Source of the DNA: Candidatus Hydrogenedentota bacterium
GTDB taxonomy: Bacteria > Hydrogenedentota > Hydrogenedentia > Hydrogenedentales > CAITNO01
Length of the DNA stretch: 48,567 nt
Reading direction: 5' to 3'
Assembly (NCBI GenBank): GCA_012730045.1
Contig: JAAYBR010000044.1
Coordinates: 1 to 48,567 of the forward strand
The notes beneath the pieces are model-generated. The model had not been told where the DNA came from. It was given only the letters and a program-made list of their open reading frames with translations, and did no database searches. Positions 29,941 through 42,122 of the stretch are shown piece by piece (position 1 is the first letter of the stretch; the number at the start of each line of letters is the position of its first letter). A program made the position numbers and the translations under genes.

Positions 29941-29984
29941 GGCTCACGGCGCAAAAGGGCTCGCAAAGGGCGCAATGGGCTCAT
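29917..29984 (+). repeat. Imperfect 11-bp tandem repeat upstream of mod
   Basis: Units related to AAAGGGCTCAC recur: 29917-29927, 29928-29938, a diverged stretch 29939-29953, 29954-29964, a shortened unit 29965-29973 and AATGGGCTCAT at 29974-29984. The array spans the 3' end of the small gene and the leader of the methyltransferase. The unit length is not a multiple of three. Confidence 0.75.
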
Positions 29985-30042
29985 GGCGGAGGAACACAGA
30001 AGGCCGAAACCCCGGGGAAGGCCCCGGGTGGAGCGGGAAAGC

Positions 30043-31836
30043 ATGGCGAACACAAGACAAAAACTCGAACTCACCTGGATCGGAAAGGAAAACCGGCCCC
30101 GCCTGGAGCCGCGCATCCTCCTGGAGGACCCGGAGAGGTCGTACCATGCCGCAAGCCGGGTCTCCGAGAACGATCTCTTCGACAACCGGCTGATCTTCGG
30201 CGACAACCTCCTGGCGCTCAAGGCACTGGAACAGGAGTTCACCGGCAAGATCAAGTGTATCTACATCGATCCGCCGTTCAACACAGGTTCTGCGTTCGAA
30301 CACTATGACGATGGCCTAGAACACTCCACTTGGCTCCAACTCATGCAACACCGATTGGAGATTCTGAGGCGCCTCTTGCTTCCTGAAGGCGTGTTGTTGC
30401 TTCACCTTGACGACAAGGAAATGGCATACGCCAAAGTGCTCTGCGATGAGGTATTTGGACGGCCTCAGTTCTTGAATATGTTTGTCGTAAAGACTTCGGA
30501 TCCATCTGGACACAAAACGGTCAACCCGTCCCCTTATTCCCAAACAGAATATGTGCTTTTTTATGCAAAAGACCGTGCGCGGTACAAGTATGACCAGCGG
30601 TATGTCGAGTCATCTTACGACACCGGATACAACCGAGTGATATTAAACCCTAAGGAACCGTACACCAACTGGCGCTTTGGGAACATCAATGAGATTGTTT
30701 CAAAGCAGCTTGGGCACGACAGCACTCGTGAGGCGCAGAAATTCATGGGTCGAATGACCTTTTATGCTGTTGTGGCTCAATACGCGCTAGAGAATGCGCA
30801 TGCTGTGTTTCAATTGACAGCGATTAGCAATGCTGCAGGTCGTTCGATAGTTAAAATGCGAGATGAGTCAGCGGCGAATCATGACAGAGTGTTCTTTCAC
30901 CCGCGTGAGGGGCACGAGGATATTTATATTCTCAATGGAAGACAGATGTATTTCTACTCATCAAAAACCAAAGTGATCGATGGATCTAAGGTTCCAGCCA
31001 AGCCGCTAACAAATCTCTGGACAGATATTTCTTGGAACGGAATAGCCGGGGAGGGCGGAGTCGAGTTTAAGAATGGTAAGAAACCGGAGAAGCTGGTTCA
31101 TCGCTGTATTGAGCTGTCCACTGAGCCCGGAGACATTGTTCTCGACTCCTTCGCGGGTTCCGGGACAACGGGTGCGGTGGCGCACAAGATGGGGCGGCGG
31201 TGGATCATGGTGGAGTTGGGCGAGCACTGCCACACACATATCATTCCCCGGCTGCAGAAGGTAATTGACGGCGAGGATCCGGGGGGGATCACGGAGGCCG
31301 CAGGCTGGCAGGGCGGGGGCGGGTTCCGGTACTACCGGCTGGCGCCGTCGCTGCTGGAGCGGGACCGGTTTGGCAACTGGGTCATCAGCCGGGAGTTCAA
31401 CGCGGCCATGCTGGCGGAGGCGGTGTGCAAGCTGGAGGGGTTCGTGTATGCGCCGAGCGACGCCGTGTACTGGCAGCACGGTCACTCGACGGAGACGGAT
31501 TTCCTTTATGTGACGACGCAGACCCTGACGCGGGACATGATGCAGCAACTGAGCGACGAGGTGGGCGCCACCCGCTCGCTGCTGGTGTACTGCGGCGCGT
31601 TCAGGGGCCGGGCGGACGCCTTTGCCAACCTGACGGTGAAGAAAATCCCCAAGGCGGTGCTGAGACGGTGCGAGTGGGGCCGCGACGACTACAGCCTGGA
31701 AGTGAGCGAGCTGCCGCCGCCCGCCCCCGCCCCGCCCCCCGAAGCGGCCCCGCCCGTGGCGCGCGGCAGCGCAAGGAGACAGCAGGAAACGGCATCGGGC
31801 CAGACGGACCTGTTTGAAGAGGGGGGCGAGCGATGA
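30043..31836 (+). CDS. mod: Type III-like site-specific DNA adenine methyltransferase (Mod)
   Basis: A 597-aa beta-class methyltransferase. Motif IV DPPFNTG starts at D76 and motif I FAGSGTTG starts at residue 370, the order of type III Mod proteins, with the target-recognition region between. I start at ATG 30043 (MANTRQKLELTWIG); the frame opens at 29983 within repeat-derived sequence. The stretch from about codon 83 to 365 has far lower GC than both flanks. The C-terminal part (400-560) is a conserved partner-interaction region, followed by a Pro/Ala linker and QTDLFEEGGER. The stop overlaps the res start (ATGA), so the two are coupled. Confidence 0.92.
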   Translation: MANTRQKLELTWIGKENRPRLEPRILLEDPERSYHAASRVSENDLFDNRLIFGDNLLALKALEQEFTGKIKCIYIDPPFNTGSAFEHYDDGLEHSTWLQLMQHRLEILRRLLLPEGVLLLHLDDKEMAYAKVLCDEVFGRPQFLNMFVVKTSDPSGHKTVNPSPYSQTEYVLFYAKDRARYKYDQRYVESSYDTGYNRVILNPKEPYTNWRFGNINEIVSKQLGHDSTREAQKFMGRMTFYAVVAQYALENAHAVFQLTAISNAAGRSIVKMRDESAANHDRVFFHPREGHEDIYILNGRQMYFYSSKTKVIDGSKVPAKPLTNLWTDISWNGIAGEGGVEFKNGKKPEKLVHRCIELSTEPGDIVLDSFAGSGTTGAVAHKMGRRWIMVELGEHCHTHIIPRLQKVIDGEDPGGITEAAGWQGGGGFRYYRLAPSLLERDRFGNWVISREFNAAMLAEAVCKLEGFVYAPSDAVYWQHGHSTETDFLYVTTQTLTRDMMQQLSDEVGATRSLLVYCGAFRGRADAFANLTVKKIPKAVLRRCEWGRDDYSLEVSELPPPAPAPPPEAAPPVARGSARRQQETASGQTDLFEEGGER

Positions 31837-34505
31837 ACCCGCAGGTGAACACCATCAGCAACCGGCTGAGCCTGCGCGCGCCGCAGCGCGAGGCGCTGGA
31901 GATTCTGGACCGCGTGTGCGACTTCATCCCGCTGCAGAAGGGCGGGGATGTCGGGGCGGCGCTGGACGCCATCCGGCCCTTATTCCCGTCGGTCGCGGAT
32001 TTCGAGCGCGACTTCCCGTCGTTGTGCTTCGCGCTGGCGACGGGCGTGGGCAAGACGCGGCTCATGGGCGCGTTCATCAGCTACCTGCACCGCGTCGAGA
32101 GCATCCGGCACTTCTTCGTGCTGGCGCCGAACCTGACGATCTACGGCAAACTGATCGCGGACTTCACGCCGAACACGCCGAAATACGTGTTCCAGGGCAT
32201 CTCCGAATTTGCCACCACGCCGCCGGTGATCATCACGGGCGACACCTATGAGCAGGGCATCGGCGTCCGTGACGGCTACCTGTTCGAGGCGGGCGAGGTG
32301 CACGTCAACATCTTCAACATCTCGAAGATCACCGGCGAAATGCGGGGGGGCAGCGCGCCGCGCATCAAGCGCCTGAGCGAGTACATCGGCGAGAGCTACT
32401 TCGAGTACCTGTCCAAGCTGGACGACCTGGTGCTGATCATGGACGAGTCGCACCGGTACCGGGCGGCGGCGGGCATGCAGGCCATCAACGACCTGAACCC
32501 CGTCCTGGGGCTGGAGCTGACGGCGACGCCCTTCATCCAGGCCGGGCAGCAGGTGCACCCGTTCCAAAACACGATCTATAGCTACCCGCTGTCCTGCGCG
32601 CTGAGCGACGGGTTCGTCAAGGAGCCCGCGGTGGCGACGCGCGAGAATTTCCAGGCGGACAACTACGACGGCGACGGCCTGGAACGGCTGAAACTGGAGG
32701 ACGGCATCCGCTTCCACGAGAACACCAAGGTGGAGCTGGAGGTGTACGCGCGCGAGAACAGCCGGCCCATCGTGAAGCCGTTCATGCTGGTGGTGGCGCA
32801 GGACACGGGGCACGCTGACGCGCTGGTGCGGGTCATCGAGGACGACGGGTTCTTCGAGGGCCGGTACCGGGGCCGGGTCATCACGGTCCACTCCAACCTG
32901 CGCGGCGAGGAGCGGGACGAAACGGTCCAGCAGCTGCTCTCGGTGGAGGACCGGGAGAACCCGGTCGAGATCGTGGTCCACGTCAACATGCTCAAGGAGG
33001 GGTGGGACGTCACGAACCTGTACACCATCGTGCCGCTGCGGGCGGCCAACGCCCGGACGCTGGTGGAGCAGTCCATCGGGCGCGGCCTGCGCCTGCCCTA
33101 TGGGAAGCGGACGGGCAACCCCGCCGTGGACCGCCTGACCATCGTGTCCCACGACCGGTTCCAGGAGATCATTGACCACGCCAACGACCCCCACTCCGTG
33201 ATCCGGACGGGCATCGTCATCGGCCGCGACGTGCCGGACGGGAAGACGCGGGTGGTGGTGGCGCAGCCGACCCTGGAGACGCAGCTCCTGGGCGGGGAAC
33301 CGGGGGCACCGGTGCAGGGGACCCTCCTGTTCGCGCGGCCCGAAGAGCGCCAGGCCATCCGCACGGTGCTCAACATCATCCGGGACTACGAGCGCCTGCC
33401 CCGTTCGGCGGACCTGCAGCTTCCGGAGGTCCAGCTGGAGCTGGTGGCGCGGGCGCGGGAGGTGATGACGCCGGCCCAGTACGAGATCGCGGGCACGTCG
33501 GAGCGGGTGGACCTGGAGCGGGTGGTGCGCGAGACGGCGGCGCGGTATGTCGCCTTGTCCATAGACATCCCCCGCATCGTGGTGGTGCCGAGGGGCGCGG
33601 TGACCGGCGGGTTCCGCGACTTTGACCTGGACACCTCCAACGTGCGCCTGCTGCCGGTGGCCACCGGCCTGATCTCCCAGGGGCTGCACGACGGAGCCCG
33701 GTATCGCCTGACCGGCGGCGACGGCATTGCGCCGGAGGACCGCCTGGAGGACTACCTCGTGCGCGGCCTCATAGACTTCGACGACGTGAACTACGATGAA
33801 AACGCCGAGCTGCTCTACAAGCTGGCCGGGCAGATGGTGCGCCACCTGCACTCGTACCTGAAGGACGACGACGAGGTGCTGAACGTGCTCCAGCACCACC
33901 AACAGACACTGGTCAACCTCATCCACGCGCAGATGCAGAACCACTACGAGGAGACGGCGGCGGAGTACGAGGCAAAGGTCAGCAAGGGGTTCACGACCAT
34001 CCGGGAGACCGCGTTCAACGCGGCCGCCGACGAGGAGGTGCGCAATGTGCGCGCGCCTGTGGCCGACAGGCAGAACATCCGGCGCATGCTTTTCGGCGGC
34101 TTCCAGCGCTGCCTGTACTCCGTTCAGAAGTTCGACGCCGACTCCGAGCGGCGGTTTGCCGTGATCCTGGAAACGGACCCCGATGTGCTCAAATGGTTCA
34201 AACCGTCCCGGGGCGCTTTTGAGATCCACTACGGCCACGACGACGCGGCGTACAACCCCGACTTTGTGGTGGAGACCCAAACGGCCAAGTTCATCTGCGA
34301 GCCCAAGGCCGCCAATGAGATGGCCGACGAGACGGTGCTCGCCAAGGCCAGAGCCGCCGCCGTCTGGTGCCAGCACGCCACCAAACACGCCGAGACCTGC
34401 GGCGGCAAACCGTGGGCCTACCTGCTCATCCCCGACTCCGTCATCCAGGAAAACATGACCCTGCAGGGCCTGGCCGCCGCCCACACGTTCCGGCTGCCCG
34501 GCTGA
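31833..34505 (+). CDS. res: Type III restriction enzyme Res subunit (helicase-nuclease)
   Basis: An 890-aa subunit. The ATPase motor has ATGVGKTRL (K74), DESH at 204-207, LELTATPF, and the C-terminal motif HVNMLKEGWDVTNLY with EQSIGRGLRLP. Near the C-terminus a PD-(D/E)xK nuclease is visible: YNPDFVV with D810, then E823 and K825 in CEPK. All catalytic residues are there, so the enzyme looks intact. Known type III systems need Mod plus Res and ATP for cleavage of unmodified phage DNA. Translation is coupled to mod. Confidence 0.92.
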   Translation: MNPQVNTISNRLSLRAPQREALEILDRVCDFIPLQKGGDVGAALDAIRPLFPSVADFERDFPSLCFALATGVGKTRLMGAFISYLHRVESIRHFFVLAPNLTIYGKLIADFTPNTPKYVFQGISEFATTPPVIITGDTYEQGIGVRDGYLFEAGEVHVNIFNISKITGEMRGGSAPRIKRLSEYIGESYFEYLSKLDDLVLIMDESHRYRAAAGMQAINDLNPVLGLELTATPFIQAGQQVHPFQNTIYSYPLSCALSDGFVKEPAVATRENFQADNYDGDGLERLKLEDGIRFHENTKVELEVYARENSRPIVKPFMLVVAQDTGHADALVRVIEDDGFFEGRYRGRVITVHSNLRGEERDETVQQLLSVEDRENPVEIVVHVNMLKEGWDVTNLYTIVPLRAANARTLVEQSIGRGLRLPYGKRTGNPAVDRLTIVSHDRFQEIIDHANDPHSVIRTGIVIGRDVPDGKTRVVVAQPTLETQLLGGEPGAPVQGTLLFARPEERQAIRTVLNIIRDYERLPRSADLQLPEVQLELVARAREVMTPAQYEIAGTSERVDLERVVRETAARYVALSIDIPRIVVVPRGAVTGGFRDFDLDTSNVRLLPVATGLISQGLHDGARYRLTGGDGIAPEDRLEDYLVRGLIDFDDVNYDENAELLYKLAGQMVRHLHSYLKDDDEVLNVLQHHQQTLVNLIHAQMQNHYEETAAEYEAKVSKGFTTIRETAFNAAADEEVRNVRAPVADRQNIRRMLFGGFQRCLYSVQKFDADSERRFAVILETDPDVLKWFKPSRGAFEIHYGHDDAAYNPDFVVETQTAKFICEPKAANEMADETVLAKARAAAVWCQHATKHAETCGGKPWAYLLIPDSVIQENMTLQGLAAAHTFRLPG

Positions 34506-34621: not shown

Positions 34622-35383
34622 ATGACGGACAGCCGGGACATATCCCCCAAGTGGTATCAGCGGAGCTTCGGCGCGCTGTACCCGCTGGTCTACGCCCACC
34701 GGAGCCCGGAGGCGGCGGCGGGGGAGGCGCGTTTTGCCGCGGAGGCCGTCGGGTTGGGCGCGGGGGACCGTGTGCTGGACCTGTGCTGCGGCGCGGGGCG
34801 GCATGCGGCGCATCTGCTGGGGCGGACCCGCCGGGTCACGGGGCTGGACTGGTCGCCGGAGCTGCTGGCGGCGGCGCGGGCGGGGCTGGGGGGCGCGGCG
34901 GCGCTGGTGCGGGGGGACATGCGGGCCCTGCCTTTCGGCGGGGTCTTTGACGGGGTGTTCAATTTTTTCACGAGCTTTGGCTATTTCGCGGACGACGCGG
35001 AGAATGCGCGGGCGGCGGGGGAGATGGCGCGGGTGCTGCGGCCCGGCGGGCGGCTGTTTCTGGACCATATCGGCGCGGCGTGGGCGGCGGCGCGGCTGGT
35101 GCCGCGTTCGGAGCGCGAGCAGGACGGCCTCCGCATCGTGGAGGAGCGCTGGCTGGACGGCGGCGAACCGCCCGCGCGGGTGAACAAGGTGACCACGGTC
35201 TGGCGGGACGGCGCGTGCCTCGGGCGCTTTCCGGAGTCGGTGCGGCTGTACACGCTGGAGACGCTGGGGGCCGTGCTGTCCGGCGCGGGGCTGGCGGTCG
35301 AGCGGGTGTTTGGCGACTACGGGGACGTTTCCCCCGGCCCCGACGCGCCCCGGCTGATTTTCGTGTGCAGAAAGGGCGGGTGA
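34622..35383 (+). CDS. SAM-dependent methyltransferase of the bacillithiol operon (NmbA candidate)
   Basis: A 253-aa class I methyltransferase: motif I VLDLCCGAGRHA from residue 51, acidic LDWSPELL after strand 2, RGDMRALPF, FDGVFNFFTSFGYF and LRPGGRLFLDHIG. ATG at 34622 with GAGAGGG upstream; the longer frame from 34367 has no support. It ends one base before bshC, so it is almost surely cotranscribed with bacillithiol genes. Chlorobiaceae make N-methyl-bacillithiol with a SAM methyltransferase, and this gene could do the same; that is an inference from position only. Confidence 0.85.
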   Translation: MTDSRDISPKWYQRSFGALYPLVYAHRSPEAAAGEARFAAEAVGLGAGDRVLDLCCGAGRHAAHLLGRTRRVTGLDWSPELLAAARAGLGGAAALVRGDMRALPFGGVFDGVFNFFTSFGYFADDAENARAAGEMARVLRPGGRLFLDHIGAAWAAARLVPRSEREQDGLRIVEERWLDGGEPPARVNKVTTVWRDGACLGRFPESVRLYTLETLGAVLSGAGLAVERVFGDYGDVSPGPDAPRLIFVCRKGG

Positions 35384-35384
35384 C

Positions 35385-36938
35385 ATGACGGCGGATTTTG
35401 CGGCAGCCTATGCGTCCGGCGACCCAGCGGCCTGCGCGCTCCTTGGCGGGCCGCACGGGCGGCTGTTCACCGCGCCCGGCCCCGTGCCCGCGCCGCCGCC
35501 GGAGGTTGTTTCCGAGATCAACGAACACCAGGCGCGGCTGGGCACGGCCGCGCGGATTCCCGCAGGCGCGCGCCTCCTCGTCACGGGCCAGCAGCCCGGC
35601 CTCTTCGCGGGGCCGATGTACACGGTGTACAAGGCGGCGACGACGGTGTTGCTGGCGCGGGAGCTGGCGGCCACCACCGGCGCGCCCTGCGCGCCCGTGT
35701 TCTGGACCGCCTCCGAGGACCACGATTTCGACGAGGTGCGCACGGCGCACTTTCTCGACGCGCGCCGCGCGCCGTTTTCCCTGTCCCTGCCCGCGGAGGA
35801 CCCGCCGTCCGACCGGCCCCTGTTCGCCGTGCCCGCAACCGAGGCGCTGCACGCGCTCATTGACGAGGCGGCGGCCCGCTGCGCGGGGTCCGAGCTGACG
35901 CCGGAGGTGGCGGCCTTCCTGCATGACACGGCGTCGGCGTCGGACTCGCTGGCGGATTGGTTCCAGCGCATAATGGCCCGCCTGTTCGGCGGCACGCCGC
36001 TGGTCCATTTCGCGCCCCACTGGCCCGCCGCGCGGGCGGCGGTGCGCGGCGTGATCCGGCGCGAGATCGAGACCCCCCTCGTGTCCACGCGCCTCGTGAA
36101 CGGGGCGGCGTCGGCGCTGGAGCGCCTGGGGTATGCGGCGGGGGTGCGGCGTCCGGAGACGGCGTGCAACTTCTTCCTGCTGTCCGGCGGGCGGCGGCTG
36201 CGCGTCCACTGGCAGGACGGCCGCTTTGTGCTGCCCGACGCCCCCGGCGGGGACTACGAACCGGCGGCGCTGCTGGACCTGCTGGAGGCGGAACCGGGGC
36301 GCTTCTCGCCGAACGTGGTCCTGCGGCCCGTGGTGCAGCAGGCGCTCTTCGGCGCGGCGGCCTGCGTCTGCGGCCCCGGCGAAACGGTATACTGGGCGCA
36401 GCTCGGCGGCGTCTTCGACCACTTCGACACGCCCTTCCCCGTGGTGTGGCCGCGGGCGCGCGCCGTGATCCTCGGCGCGAAGGAGCGCAAGCACCTGCGC
36501 GCATTCGGCCTGCCGGCGGAGGCGCTGGCCACCGGGGCGGACGCGGTGGTGGACCGGGCGCTGCGGGACGCGCCGCCGCCGGAGGCGCTGGCGGAGGCGC
36601 GGCGGCGACGCGACGCGATGCTCGCGGAGGCGGAGGCGCTGCGCGCGCGGCTTGGCGAAGGCCCCGCGGCGGACGCGGCGGCGAAACTGGCGGAGGCGGT
36701 GGGGCAGGGCTTCGGGCGCGTCGAGCGCGCGCTGCTGCACGGAGACCGCGAAAAGGTCGCCGCGCTGTCGGCGCGGGCGCGGCGGCTGTGCGATGTGGCG
36801 ATGCCCGGGGGGCGTCCGCAGGAGCGGGCGCTGTCCCCGTTCACGTGGCTGTTTTCCGAGGGCTTCGGCTTCACGGACGCCGTGCTGCGCGGGCTGGACC
36901 CGCACGCGCCCGGCGTGCAGGAGATGGAAATCGGATGA
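35385..36938 (+). CDS. bshC: Bacillithiol biosynthesis protein BshC (putative cysteine ligase)
   Basis: BshC (517 aa) is assigned to the last step of bacillithiol synthesis, adding cysteine to glucosaminyl-malate. Family landmarks are clear: LLVTGQQPGLFAGPMYTVYKAAT (from 65), PVFWTASEDHDFDEV (from 104) and, further on, FSPNVVLRPVVQQAL with CGPGETVYWAQL. The C-terminal coiled coil is Ala/Glu/Arg-rich (about 395-475). Its stop overlaps the next start (ATGA). Codon third positions favour G (GCG, CTG), unlike bshA. Confidence 0.95.
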   Translation: MTADFAAAYASGDPAACALLGGPHGRLFTAPGPVPAPPPEVVSEINEHQARLGTAARIPAGARLLVTGQQPGLFAGPMYTVYKAATTVLLARELAATTGAPCAPVFWTASEDHDFDEVRTAHFLDARRAPFSLSLPAEDPPSDRPLFAVPATEALHALIDEAAARCAGSELTPEVAAFLHDTASASDSLADWFQRIMARLFGGTPLVHFAPHWPAARAAVRGVIRREIETPLVSTRLVNGAASALERLGYAAGVRRPETACNFFLLSGGRRLRVHWQDGRFVLPDAPGGDYEPAALLDLLEAEPGRFSPNVVLRPVVQQALFGAAACVCGPGETVYWAQLGGVFDHFDTPFPVVWPRARAVILGAKERKHLRAFGLPAEALATGADAVVDRALRDAPPPEALAEARRRRDAMLAEAEALRARLGEGPAADAAAKLAEAVGQGFGRVERALLHGDREKVAALSARARRLCDVAMPGGRPQERALSPFTWLFSEGFGFTDAVLRGLDPHAPGVQEMEIG

Positions 36939-37669
36939 GCGGAGAGACCACACCGGTGGATGTGCTGGCCGTCGGCGCGCATCCCGACGACGTCGAGATC
37001 GGCTGCGGCGGGCTGCTGGCGAAGCTCGTGCGCGACGGATACAGCGTCGCCCTGGCCGACCTTACGGCGGGGGAGACGGGCACCCGCGGCACCGTGGAGG
37101 AGCGGCGCGTGGAGGCGGCGAACGCCGCACGCGTGCTGGGGGTCCGCGCGCGCGTGTGCGCCGGCCTGCCCGACGGCGGCGTGGCCAACACGCCGGAGCA
37201 GCAGCGCGCGGTGATCCAGATCGTGCGGCGGTTCCGGCCGAAGGTGCTGGTGACGCTCATGGACCGCGACCGGCACCCGGACCACTCGGCGGCGCATGTC
37301 CTCGTGCGCGAGGCGAACTTCCTGGCGGGACTCGCCCGCATCGAGACGGGCCAGCCCGCCCACCGCACCCCGGTGCTTTATTACTTCCACCCCTACACCG
37401 ACTTCACCGGCACGCCGGACTTCCTCGTGGACGTGACCGACACCTTCGACACCAAGCTCGCCGCCCTGGCGGAGCACAAATCCCAGTTCCACAACCCCGA
37501 CCATCCCGGCGAGCAGACCTACATCTCGTCGCCCGAATTCTGGGAGGGCATCACCGTCCGCGCCCGCTACTGGGGCGGGCGCATGGGCGTGCGGTACGCC
37601 GAGCCCTTCTTCTGCGAGGGGCCCCTGCTGTTGGACACCCTCCCCGGGCTGAAAGGAACCGCCCCATGA
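36935..37669 (+). CDS. bshB1: Bacillithiol biosynthesis deacetylase BshB1 (PIG-L family)
   Basis: A 244-aa zinc deacetylase that removes the acetyl group from N-acetylglucosaminyl-malate. The PIG-L motif AHPDD (15-19, VGAHPDDVEIGCGG) and the second motif with H115 and H118 (DRHPDHSAAH) supply metal ligands; GETGTRGT follows strand 2. Start at 36935 overlaps the bshC stop; its own stop overlaps the bshA start. GGAGAT lies just upstream. Cytoplasmic. Confidence 0.93.
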   Translation: MSGETTPVDVLAVGAHPDDVEIGCGGLLAKLVRDGYSVALADLTAGETGTRGTVEERRVEAANAARVLGVRARVCAGLPDGGVANTPEQQRAVIQIVRRFRPKVLVTLMDRDRHPDHSAAHVLVREANFLAGLARIETGQPAHRTPVLYYFHPYTDFTGTPDFLVDVTDTFDTKLAALAEHKSQFHNPDHPGEQTYISSPEFWEGITVRARYWGGRMGVRYAEPFFCEGPLLLDTLPGLKGTAP

Positions 37670-38814
37670 AACTCGGCATCACCTGCCAGGCCGGCACCGG
37701 CGGCAGCGGCATCCTCGCCACCGAACTGGGCCTCGCCCTCGCCGCGCGGGGACACGAGGTCCACTTCGTCACCCTCGAGCAGCCCTTCCGCCTCGCCGGC
37801 TTCCGCGAGAACGTGTACACCCACTACGTCGAGGACGTGACCTACCCCGTGTTCCGCGTGCCGCCGTACACCCTGTCGCTGGCGTCCAAGATCAGCGAGG
37901 TGGCCGAGGAGCACGGGATCGAAATCTGGCATGCCCACTACGCCATCCCCAACGCGGCGGCGGCGCTCTTCGCGCGCGACATGCTGCCGCCCGAGCGGCG
38001 ATTCTGCCTCGTCACCACGGTCCACGGCACCGACATCACCCTCGTCGGCGGGCACCCGTCGTTCTACCGCGCCACGCGCTTCGCCATGGAGAACAGCTGC
38101 GTCGTCACCGCCGTGTCCGACTGGCTCAGCCGCGAGACGGAGCGCGAGTTCGCCCTGACCGTTCCCGTGCGCACCATCCACAACTTCACGGACCCCGAAC
38201 GGTTCAAACCGAAGCCCGCCGTGAACCGCGACCGGCTCGCCGCCCCCGGCGAGCGCATCGTCATGCACGTCTCCAACTTCCGCCCCGTGAAGCGTGTCAC
38301 CGACGTGGTGCGCGCCTTTGCCCGCATGCTGGAGGAGGTGGACGCGCGGCTGCTCCTCGTGGGCGACGGCCCCGAGCGCCTCAGCGCCGTCGGCGTGGCC
38401 AAGCAGCTCGGCGTCCTCGACAAGATCACCAGCCTGGGCAACGTGGAGAACATCGAGGACCTGCTGCCCGCCGCCGACCTCGTGTTCCAGCCCAGCGAGC
38501 ACGAGAGCTTCGGCCTCGTCCCGCTCGAGGCCATGGCCTGCGGCGTGCCCGTCCTTGCCACCGCCAGCGGCGGCGTCACCGAGGTCGTCGAACACGGCGT
38601 CACCGGCTACCTTTGCGGGGTCGGCGACATTGACGCCATGGTCCGCCACGGCGTCGCCATCCTGTCCGACCCCGCCCTGCGTGCGGCCCTGGGCGCGCGG
38701 GCGCGCGAGCGCGTCCTGACGCGGTTCCCCGTGGACCGCATCGTCGGCCAGTACGAGGCCCTGTACGCGGAGGTGCTGGAGCGCCGCCGCGCGCTCGGCG
38801 GCGCCCCCCACTGA
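37666..38814 (+). CDS. bshA: N-acetyl-alpha-D-glucosaminyl L-malate synthase BshA
   Basis: BshA (382 aa) is a GT-B retaining glycosyltransferase that joins UDP-GlcNAc and L-malate in the first bacillithiol step. N-terminal KLGITCQAGTGGSGILATELGLALAARGHEVHFV, WHAHYAIPNAAAA, VTTVHGTDITLVG and the C-terminal FRPVKRVTDVV and EHESFGLVPLEAMACGVPV (E280 and E288) match BshA of other phyla. ATG 37666 overlaps the bshB1 stop, with AAAGGA 8 nt upstream. Length is normal for the family (about 375-385). Confidence 0.95.
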   Translation: MKLGITCQAGTGGSGILATELGLALAARGHEVHFVTLEQPFRLAGFRENVYTHYVEDVTYPVFRVPPYTLSLASKISEVAEEHGIEIWHAHYAIPNAAAALFARDMLPPERRFCLVTTVHGTDITLVGGHPSFYRATRFAMENSCVVTAVSDWLSRETEREFALTVPVRTIHNFTDPERFKPKPAVNRDRLAAPGERIVMHVSNFRPVKRVTDVVRAFARMLEEVDARLLLVGDGPERLSAVGVAKQLGVLDKITSLGNVENIEDLLPAADLVFQPSEHESFGLVPLEAMACGVPVLATASGGVTEVVEHGVTGYLCGVGDIDAMVRHGVAILSDPALRAALGARARERVLTRFPVDRIVGQYEALYAEVLERRRALGGAPH

Positions 38815-39068: not shown

Positions 39069-42000
39069 ATGAGAATGGGCGCGTGGATCGGTCTGTTCCT
39101 GATTGCGGGGGCGTCTCTCGCCGCGGAGCCGGTGAAACAGTGGGAGGACACGCTCACGCTGCCCACCTACGGGTGGGAGGACGACCCGAACCCGGTGTTC
39201 CAGGCGTATGAGACATCCATCTACTACCCCTGGACCCGGCAGGACCACCTGCCGCCGCACAAGGAGGACCGCGCCTACCGCGCCCTGCACCTGGAGAACG
39301 AGTACCTGCACGTGGTCTGCCTGCCCGGGCTGGGCGGGCGCATCCACTCGGTGTTCGACAAGACCACCGGGGAGGAGATGTTCCACAAGAACGACGTGAT
39401 CAAGCCCGCGCTCATCGCCATGCGCGGCGCGTGGATCGCCGGCGGCATCGAGTGGAACGTCGGCCCCCAGGGCCACACGGTTTTCATGATGGAGCCCGTG
39501 GGCGGCGTGCTGGAGGCGAACCCCGACGGCTCCGCCACCCTCATTGTCGCCGCCGTGGAGAAGACCTTCCGCACGCGCTGGGAGGTGCGCCTCACCCTGC
39601 ATCCCGGCCGCGCGCTCCTCGACGAGGAAATCCGCCTGACGAACCCCACCGACGGGGTGCAGCCCTACTACTTCTGGAACAACACGGCCTTCCCCAGCCG
39701 GCCCGGCACCCGCTTCATCTACCCCATGACCCTGGGCACGGACCACAACGGCACCACCTTCTTCACCTGGCCGGAAAACGGGGGCCGCGACATCACCTGG
39801 CTCAAGAACTACGACACCATGACCTCCGTGTTCGGGTACAAGGTGGACTTCGACTTCTTCGGCGCCTATGACGCCGAACGCGACCGCGGCATCGTGTCCC
39901 ACGCCAACCACCACCAGGTGCCCGGAAAGAAGGCCTGGACCTGGGGCACCGACGACTTCGGCGTTTACAGCCAGACGGGCCTCACCGACGCGGGCCGCGA
40001 CGAGGCCCCCTACATCGAGGTGCAGAGCGGCCCCCTGCGCACGCAGGCGGACCACGGCATGATGCGCCCCCGCCAGACCATCGCCTGGCGCGAGTGCTGG
40101 TATCCCGTCCACGGTCTCGGCGACGGCTTCGACTTCGCCAACGGCGACCTGGCGGTCTCCGTGAAACGCGACGGCGCCGGGCTCGCGGTCCGCATGATCG
40201 CCACCGCCGAACACGCCGCCGCCGAGTGCGCGCTCTTCGGCGCGGACTCCGCGCCGCTGGGCGCGCGGATCGTCACCCTCTTCCCGAAGACGCCCAACGT
40301 CCTCGCGTTCGACCTCGGGAAGGACGTGCCCGCCGACGCGCCCCTGCGGCTGCGGGTCTCCGTCCCCGGCGCGGTCCTGCTGGACCAGGTTTTCCCCCTG
40401 CAAATCCCCAAGGTGAACCCGCCCAGCCTGGAGAAGAAGCCGTCCCGCGCCGACGGCCTCCCCACGGCGGACGAACTGTTCGCGGAGGCTTTCCTGCTGG
40501 ACAGCCAGTCGGATCCCGACGGGGCCCGCACCGCCTACGGCAAGGCGCTCGCGACGGACCCGGCCCATGCCGACACGCTCTGGGCGCTGGCCGTCCTCGA
40601 CAACGAGCAGGGGCTCCACGCAGACGCGGCGGCCCATGCGGAAAAGGCCCTCGAGCGCGACCCGGAGCACGGCCCCGCCGCCTACCAGCTCGGCGTGGCC
40701 TGCCTGCGCCGGGGGGATTTCGCGGCGGCGGCCACCTGGGGGTGGAAGGCGTCGCGCTGCGCGGGCCTGGAGGCCGCCGGCCTCAACCTAGCGGGCCGCG
40801 CCGCCATGAACCTCGGACGGCCCGACGAGGCGCGCTCCCTGTTTGAGCGCGCCGCCGCGTGGGCGCCCCAGGACCGCGCCAACCGCGACAGCCTGCTGGC
40901 CGCGCGGTACGCTCTGGGCGGCGGGGAGGCCCTGGCAAAGGACCTCGCGGCCGTCCGCAAGGACGCCCCGCTCGACCCGCTGCCCGCGCTGCTGGAGCCG
41001 ATGGCGCGCGGCGAGGTTCCCGCGCTGGTGCCCGCCCTCCGGGGGCTTGGCGGCGACCCCGTGTTCAACGTTCTCGACGCTGCCGCGTTCTTCGCGGACC
41101 ACGGCCAGCCCGCGGCGGCGCTGCTGCTGCTGCGCGCCGCCCTCCCCGACAAGACGCTGTTTCCGCAGGACGACCCCTTCGTCCTCTACGCCGCCGCGTA
41201 TTACCGCGACCGGCTCGGCGACGACGCGCCGCCCCCCCTGAAGGCCGTCCCCGTGGACGACCTGCTCGCCCGCGCCGCCGCCGCGCCCCTGTCCAAGAAC
41301 TTCCCCCACGGCGCGCAGGCCTTCGCCGTGCTGGAATGGGCCGCCGCCCGGCAGCCCGCCGCCGCCAACGCGCCGTACCTGCTCGGCCTTGCCTGCGCGG
41401 GCGCCCACCGCCTGGACGAGGCCGTCGCGCGGTGGGAGGCCGCCGTCGCGCTCGACCCGGCCCTCGCGCCCGCGTGGCGGCTCCTCGGCCTGCACCGCTG
41501 GAAAAAAGACGCCGACCTGGCCGGTGCGGAGGAGTGCCTGAAGAAGGCCTTCGCCGCCGCCCCCGGCGACCAGGTCATCCTTAACGACCTCGCCGCCGTG
41601 CTCACGGCCCTCGGGCGGCGGCCCGAGGCGCTCGCGCTGGTCGAGGCGCTGCCCGCCGGCGTTGACATCCGCTACGACCTCGCCCTCTGGCGCGCAGAGG
41701 CCCTGCTGGGCGAGAAGCAGTACGACCGCTGCCTCGACCTCCTGCGCACCGGCGACTTCACCAACTGGGAGGGCGCCACCAAGCCCCGCGACCTCTACAC
41801 CGCCGCCCTCACGGCGCGCGGGAAGCTCCGCGCCGAAGAGGGGCGCACCGGGGACGCCCTCGCCGACTTCCGCGAGGCCCTCACCTACCCCGAAAACCTC
41901 GGCGTCGGCCGCAAATACAAACCCACCGAGGCCGAGGCCCGCTACTGGGCCGGCAAAATGCTCCACCTGCTCGGCCGCACCGAAGAGGCCCGCGCCGAAT

Positions 42001-42122
42001 GGACCGAGGGCGCAAGCCAGGTGGACCGCCAGTCCCCGCCGCTCCCCTTCATCACCGTCACCGACGCCCAGGACGCGCACGTCAAAAAATGCGCCGCCGC
42101 CCTCGAACTGCTGCCGAAATAG
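39069..42122 (+). CDS. Secreted DUF5107/TPR-repeat protein
   Basis: A 1017-aa protein. A signal peptide (MRMGAWIGLFLIAGASLA, cleavage near residue 19) suggests export. Residues about 20-370 match the DUF5107 type (ENEYLHVVCLPGLGGRIHSVFDK, GAWIAGGIEWNVGPQGH, PYYFWNNTAFP), a galactose-mutarotase-like beta-sandwich often linked to carbohydrate handling. Residues about 470-1000 are alpha-helical TPR-like units (AYGKALATDPAHADTLWALA, YRLGVACLRRGDF-like). AGAGAGG 8 nt upstream of ATG 39069. It starts 59 nt after the small protein and may be read through from the bacillithiol operon. Exact function unknown. Confidence 0.85.
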   Translation: MRMGAWIGLFLIAGASLAAEPVKQWEDTLTLPTYGWEDDPNPVFQAYETSIYYPWTRQDHLPPHKEDRAYRALHLENEYLHVVCLPGLGGRIHSVFDKTTGEEMFHKNDVIKPALIAMRGAWIAGGIEWNVGPQGHTVFMMEPVGGVLEANPDGSATLIVAAVEKTFRTRWEVRLTLHPGRALLDEEIRLTNPTDGVQPYYFWNNTAFPSRPGTRFIYPMTLGTDHNGTTFFTWPENGGRDITWLKNYDTMTSVFGYKVDFDFFGAYDAERDRGIVSHANHHQVPGKKAWTWGTDDFGVYSQTGLTDAGRDEAPYIEVQSGPLRTQADHGMMRPRQTIAWRECWYPVHGLGDGFDFANGDLAVSVKRDGAGLAVRMIATAEHAAAECALFGADSAPLGARIVTLFPKTPNVLAFDLGKDVPADAPLRLRVSVPGAVLLDQVFPLQIPKVNPPSLEKKPSRADGLPTADELFAEAFLLDSQSDPDGARTAYGKALATDPAHADTLWALAVLDNEQGLHADAAAHAEKALERDPEHGPAAYQLGVACLRRGDFAAAATWGWKASRCAGLEAAGLNLAGRAAMNLGRPDEARSLFERAAAWAPQDRANRDSLLAARYALGGGEALAKDLAAVRKDAPLDPLPALLEPMARGEVPALVPALRGLGGDPVFNVLDAAAFFADHGQPAAALLLLRAALPDKTLFPQDDPFVLYAAAYYRDRLGDDAPPPLKAVPVDDLLARAAAAPLSKNFPHGAQAFAVLEWAAARQPAAANAPYLLGLACAGAHRLDEAVARWEAAVALDPALAPAWRLLGLHRWKKDADLAGAEECLKKAFAAAPGDQVILNDLAAVLTALGRRPEALALVEALPAGVDIRYDLALWRAEALLGEKQYDRCLDLLRTGDFTNWEGATKPRDLYTAALTARGKLRAEEGRTGDALADFREALTYPENLGVGRKYKPTEAEARYWAGKMLHLLGRTEEARAEWTEGASQVDRQSPPLPFITVTDAQDAHVKKCAAALELLPK

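What the first reader, a model, noticed from the sequence alone, without database searches (positions are those of the whole stretch)
34622..35383. Methyltransferase one base upstream of bshC: candidate N-methyl-bacillithiol synthase
N-methyl-bacillithiol is known from Chlorobiaceae, made by a SAM methyltransferase (NmbA). Here a SAM methyltransferase is physically the first gene of the bsh operon. If it has the same role, the thiol made in this lineage is the methylated form, and operon linkage would be new evidence for that step.
Basis: inference. Interest (0 to 1): 0.65.

Follow-up and report, generated by a model that had tools for sequence, protein, structure and literature searches.

The report
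Bacillithiol N-methyltransferase heading bacillithiol operon
In this uncultured bacterium (Candidatus Hydrogenedentota) the enzyme that adds a methyl group to the protective thiol bacillithiol is encoded directly in front of the three genes that make bacillithiol, an arrangement kept across its phylum and at least eight others, so the cell very probably makes N-methyl-bacillithiol.

Summary
A 253-aa methyltransferase ORF (34622-35383) ends one base before bshC (35385-36938), followed by overlapping bshB1 and bshA; all three pass NCBI's equivalog cut-offs. The best match among all solved proteins is C. tepidum NmbA itself (9RI2; E 6.6e-33 over the whole length; next 4.7e-14 over half). Reciprocal searches agree, with 36-38% identity. 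(1) The nmbA-bshC pair is conserved in 53 of 57 nmbA-positive genomes of this order, usually overlapping by a few bases, and in genomes labelled as eight other phyla, but not in the Chlorobiota, Bacteroidota or Paenibacillaceae looked at. The papers held do not mention linkage. (2) A related methyltransferase clade, equally similar by percent identity, occurs mostly in genomes without bshC and bshA (7 of 9). Residues R27, K189 and E205 separate it from NmbA: present in 52 of 53 bshC-linked enzymes, never all three in that clade. The window has all three. Predicted fold alone does not discriminate. Function is inferred, not assayed. NmbA and its broad distribution were published in 2018 and 2025, so this is a new member of a known family with new genomic support.

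The parts
34622..35383 (+). nmbA: SAM-dependent bacillithiol N-methyltransferase (N-methyl-bacillithiol synthase), 253 aa
   Evidence: Best PDB match 9RI2 (C. tepidum NmbA) E 6.6e-33; profile 272 bits vs 97 for the next chain; reciprocal best match; R27/K189/E205 signature
35385..36938 (+). bshC: bacillithiol synthase (cysteine-adding enzyme), 517 aa
   Evidence: TIGR03998 320.1 bits, cut-off 265.8; PF10079 E 6.7e-69
36935..37669 (+). bshB1: GlcNAc-malate deacetylase, 244 aa
   Evidence: TIGR04001 259.7 bits, cut-off 182.5; overlaps bshC stop by ATGA
37666..38814 (+). bshA: GlcNAc-malate synthase, 382 aa
   Evidence: TIGR03999 471.7 bits, cut-off 273.7; overlaps bshB1 stop by ATGA
35381..35387 (+). 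nmbA stop codon, one-base spacer and bshC start codon (TGA C ATG)
   Evidence: Read directly; nearest-start spacing within about -17 to +6 nt in nearly all linked loci, -4 commonest

Best explanation
The gene is nmbA, the first gene of a four-gene nmbA-bshC-bshB1-bshA operon in a Candidatus Hydrogenedentota genome. BshA joins UDP-GlcNAc and malate, BshB1 removes the acetyl group, BshC adds cysteine to give bacillithiol, and NmbA transfers a methyl group from SAM to the amine of the cysteine, giving N-methyl-bacillithiol as the cell's main low-molecular-weight thiol. Shown here: gene order, family membership by sequence, conserved linkage and co-occurrence with bshC. Inferred from characterised homologues: the reaction, the substrate and the product. 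Co-transcription is inferred from spacing.
For: Best match in all solved proteins is CtNmbA, 117.6 bits over residues 9-250, next 55.8 bits over the N-terminal half; with a family profile 272 vs 97 bits, although CtNmbA was one of the 23 rows so that gap is partly built in. 36-38% identity and >95% coverage, meeting the published criteria E<=1e-20, identity >25%, coverage >80%. Reciprocal best match. nmbA directly upstream of bshC in 53 of 57 nmbA-positive genomes of the order; 56 genomes have both, 9 neither, 3 discordant at contig ends (Fisher p 1e-8 on raw counts without tree correction). Same pair in records labelled Calditrichota, Planctomycetota, Gemmatimonadota, Lentisphaerota, Acidobacteriota, Krumholzibacteriota, Eiseniibacteriota, Electryoneota. 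bshC found in all 23 genomes sampled outside the sister clade that carry NmbA-type enzymes, but in 2 of 9 of that clade; BshA agrees. R27-K189-E205 in 52 of 53 bshC-linked enzymes, in no sister-clade member as a set. CtNmbA and PpNmbA methylate BSH in vitro and the CT1040 deletion strain has BSH but no N-Me-BSH (PMC12719100, PMC6282198).
Against: No biochemical data on this protein. Predicted fold (pLDDT 93) matches several 4-strand-cap methyltransferases as well as or better than 9RI2 (rank 4), though the 2025 paper says AlphaFold also mispredicts the cap of CtNmbA. Deep branches of the family tree are unresolved. The window and its nearest relative have G at position 151, where 90% of the family has N. 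B. subtilis-type partner enzymes were not found in this genome: no BrxA/B, no YpdA above cut-off.
Confidence: 0.92

Rival explanations
1. The enzyme methylates an intermediate (cysteine or GlcN-malate) before BshC acts, so N-methylation is an early and not the final step.
For: It lies next to bshC, whose substrates are cysteine and GlcN-malate; order of reaction cannot be read from sequence.
Against: Homologues CtNmbA and PpNmbA act on finished BSH in vitro; BSH accumulates in the CT1040 deletion strain; N-Me-cysteine was never seen (PMC12719100, PMC6282198). The signature residues are shared with CtNmbA.
Confidence: 0.04
2. It belongs functionally to the related non-NmbA methyltransferase clade or to the natural-product N-methyltransferases (CypM, DesVI, TylM1 type), acts on another substrate, and sits beside bshC by accident.
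For: Percent identity to the sister clade (30-41%) is about that to CtNmbA (37%); fold search does not separate them.
Against: Lacks the sister-clade pattern and carries all nine signature residues; linkage with bshC is conserved in 53 of 57 genomes of the order and in other phyla; sister-clade genomes mostly lack bshC and bshA.
Confidence: 0.03
3. Recently acquired or misassembled neighbour gene with no link to thiol metabolism.
For: A restriction-modification pair lies just upstream (29983-34505), with low GC3 in its first gene.
Against: GC3 of the gene matches bshC/B/A; the same junction is found in independent assemblies of dozens of species.
Confidence: 0.01

Closest known systems
NmbA of Chlorobaculum tepidum (CT1040, PDB 9RI2)
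   Same: Full-length match, 36-38% identity, SFGYF motif (Y134, F135), R33/K198/E214, same pathway present in the genome
   Different: In C. tepidum the four genes are scattered (CT0548, CT1419, CT1558, CT1040); here they form one tight operon. G in place of N164.
NmbA of Paenibacillaceae (P. polymyxa enzyme assayed in PMC12719100; relatives L060-L062 here)
   Same: 37-43% identity to those relatives; same signature
   Different: nmbA not within about 6 kb of bshC in the Paenibacillus and Fontibacillus loci fetched. The P. polymyxa sequence itself was not compared.
CypM, DesVI, TylM1 and similar class I N-methyltransferases
   Same: Class I SAM-binding core, four-strand cap, N-methylation
   Different: About 77-97 bits against the profile versus 272 for CtNmbA; no R-K-E set
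Uncharacterised sister methyltransferases (L082, L094, L097, L102, L109, L110, L114, L123, L133, L044)
   Same: GRH and FG motifs, 30-41% identity
   Different: Not linked to bsh genes; 7 of 9 genomes outside this phylum lack bshC and bshA; lack R27/K189/E205 as a set

Membership tests
NmbA (bacillithiol N-methyltransferase) | Homology to CT1040 at E<=1e-20, coverage >80%, identity >25% (criteria of PMC12719100) | tested here: met
   E 6.6e-33 in PDB search, 1.8e-32 in own-genome search, 36-38% identity over residues 9-250
NmbA (bacillithiol N-methyltransferase) | bshA, bshB and bshC in the same genome | tested here: met
   All three adjacent and above equivalog cut-offs
NmbA (bacillithiol N-methyltransferase) | Class I SAM motifs: VLDxxxGxG, aromatic YF after motif IV | tested here: met
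   VLDLCCGAG at 51-59; SFGYF at 118-122
NmbA (bacillithiol N-methyltransferase) | Reciprocal best match with NmbA of Chlorobiota | tested here: met
   (other Chlorobiota genomes; the C. tepidum genome itself was not searched)
NmbA (bacillithiol N-methyltransferase) | Residues conserved in bshC-linked NmbA but not in sister methyltransferases (R27, K189, E205); derived here after the fact, not a published criterion | tested here: met
NmbA (bacillithiol N-methyltransferase) | Closest solved fold is 9RI2 (unusual cap topology) | tested here: inconclusive
   9RI2 is rank 4 by E-value, highest identity among the listed hits (31%); AlphaFold cap known to be unreliable for CtNmbA
NmbA (bacillithiol N-methyltransferase) | Methylates BSH, not BSSB, glycine or glutathione | not testable with these tools
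   Needs an enzyme assay

The most novel reading that the evidence does not exclude
The nmbA-bshC pair is an old, widely kept unit rather than a late add-on: in several mostly uncultured phyla methylation is built into the pathway, N-methyl-bacillithiol is the obligate thiol there, and the scattered genes of Chlorobiota, Bacteroidota and Paenibacillaceae are the derived state. This contrasts with the 2018 proposal that lineages gained nmbA one by one on top of ancestral bacillithiol.
Probability: 0.25. Interest if true: 0.55.

Novelty: new member of a known kind. Interest (0 to 1): 0.42.

Why it matters
It extends predicted N-methyl-bacillithiol to an uncultured phylum not named in the main text of the two distribution surveys. 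It gives independent genomic evidence, operon linkage across several phyla, that NmbA works with BshC. And it offers a simple residue test (R-K-E) to tell real NmbA from similar methyltransferases, which percent-identity cut-offs as used so far could confuse.

Tried and rejected
Single-sequence AlphaFold model was useless (pLDDT 37); the 55-row model was good (93.3) but the fold search did not discriminate. Bracketing by CtNmbA and the Paenibacillus enzymes on a tree was tried: the quick tree suggested it, the careful tree left the deep branches weak, so it is not used as evidence. NCBIfam has no model hitting above its cut-off for this methyltransferase; best was the daptide methyltransferase at 60 bits against a cut-off of 175. 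Promoter scan found no sigma-70-like site. Literature searches for linkage or for bacillithiol in Hydrogenedentota found nothing in the library held; supplements could not be read.

Full report
OBSERVATION. The ORF is at 34622-35383 (+), 253 aa, and its stop is one base before the bshC start at 35385. bshC, bshB1 and bshA follow with ATGA overlaps; all three pass NCBI equivalog cut-offs. GC3 of the ORF (0.91) matches its operon partners.

WHOSE GENOME. The window is a contig of a 4.46 Mb genome. Two relatives in the same family have contigs identical in length, with matches at the same place, to records titled Candidatus Hydrogenedentota (SLFT01000311.1 = G009:C240; DSBB01000171.1 = G014:C71), so the window belongs to that phylum.

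FAMILY. Against all PDB sequences the best match is 9RI2, the C. tepidum bacillithiol methyltransferase NmbA: 117.6 bits, E 6.6e-33, residues 9-250; the next is KedS8 (5BSZ), 55.8 bits, N-terminal half only. A profile of 23 relatives, CtNmbA among them, gives 272 bits for 9RI2 and at most 97 for any other chain. CtNmbA searched in the own genome finds this ORF at 1.8e-32 and the next at 8.6e-11. The ORF searched in six genomes (two Chlorobiota, Fontibacillus, Brevibacillus, Chitinophaga, an Ignavibacteriaceae MAG) has one clear best match in each, at the length and identity of the NmbA locus that had been fetched there. It meets the published membership thresholds.

LINKAGE. In 80 genomes chosen as relatives, 68 lie in the window's order. 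Of these, 57 have the methyltransferase and 58 have bshC; 56 have both, 9 have neither, and three are discordant. The contigs of G033 and G019 begin inside nmbA and bshC respectively, and G055's nmbA runs to a contig end. In 53 of the 57 the two genes are neighbours on one strand; spacing is a few bases, often a 4-base overlap (the start codon nearest to the stop was taken, which favours small gaps). G005, G010 and G053 have them on different contigs. bshA is on the same contig in at least 33; in G006, where nmbA sits well inside a 177 kb contig, bshA is elsewhere. So nmbA-bshC is the conserved unit and the full four-gene operon is common but not universal. These counts are not corrected for relatedness. 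In named genomes the pair also occurs in records labelled Calditrichota, Planctomycetota (3), Gemmatimonadota (4), Lentisphaerota, Acidobacteriota, Krumholzibacteriota, Eiseniibacteriota and Electryoneota, and not in the Paenibacillaceae, Bacteroidota, Ignavibacteriota or Chlorobiota loci fetched. Many are metagenome bins, so single labels may be wrong.

A NEEDED CONTROL. Percent identity alone is a poor guide here. Ten homologues (Chloroflexota, a Thermoproteota bin, Saccharibacteria, Myxococcota and others, plus a second copy in Hydrogenedentota G052) are 30-41% identical to the window protein, as is CtNmbA (37%). Seven of the nine genomes outside the phylum have neither bshC nor bshA, whereas all 23 other sampled NmbA-type genomes have bshC. 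Nine positions separate the groups. Three of them, R27, K189 and E205 (R33, K198, E214 in CtNmbA), are all present in 52 of 53 bshC-linked enzymes and never all present in the ten. By the 2025 structure paper's topology these lie in or near the cap (substrate) segments, so a role in holding the GlcN-malate part of bacillithiol is a reasonable guess, not shown. The signature was found after the fact on these same sequences. The window protein has all nine.

STRUCTURE. A 55-row AlphaFold model is confident (pLDDT 93.3, pTM 0.91). Foldseek puts several four-strand-cap methyltransferases at the top with 9RI2 fourth. The paper on 9RI2 reports that AlphaFold predicts the wrong cap topology even for CtNmbA, so this test is inconclusive.

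MECHANISM. By homology: bacillithiol made by BshA, BshB1 and BshC is methylated by NmbA on the cysteine amine with SAM as donor. CtNmbA and P. polymyxa NmbA do this in vitro; they do not use BSSB, glycine or glutathione (PMC12719100). The C. tepidum CT1040 deletion strain holds bacillithiol in place of N-methyl-bacillithiol (PMC6282198).

KNOWN OR NEW. The enzyme family, its reaction, its structure and a wide distribution are published (PMC6282198, PMC12719100). New here, as far as the held library shows: the case in Hydrogenedentota, the conserved nmbA-bshC linkage in several phyla, and the residue signature separating NmbA from similar methyltransferases. Neither survey's main text mentions operons or neighbouring genes; their supplements could not be read, and most subscription journals are not in the library.

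Noticed in passing
29983-34505: A restriction-modification pair lies directly upstream: an ORF with a DPPF motif (29983-31836) and a ResIII helicase (31833-34505). The first gene has GC3 0.70 against 0.91-0.96 for its neighbours, suggesting recent arrival.
   Followed up: partly
L044 (G052:C95:1-4000), L082, L094, L097, L102, L109, L110, L114, L123, L133: A sister methyltransferase clade of unknown substrate, mostly in genomes without bacillithiol genes; it may be counted as NmbA by identity thresholds.
   Followed up: partly
L045 3462-5432 (-): In G045 the end of nmbA and the middle of bshC run on in one 657-aa open frame that lacks roughly the first 100 residues of BshC; natural deletion or assembly error.
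   Followed up: partly
whole genome G000: No BrxA/B-type bacilliredoxin (PF06491) and no YpdA above cut-off, so the recycling partner of the methylated thiol is unknown here.
   Followed up: partly
G001 (same genus): A 97% complete genome of the same genus (10% contamination) has neither bshA, bshC nor nmbA; eight other genomes of the order also lack both bshC and nmbA.
   Followed up: no
34622-35383, residue 151: Position 151 is G in the window and its nearest relative where about 90% of NmbA has N (N164 in C. tepidum).
   Followed up: no
39069-42122: Large DUF5107 plus TPR-repeat protein downstream of bshA.
   Followed up: no
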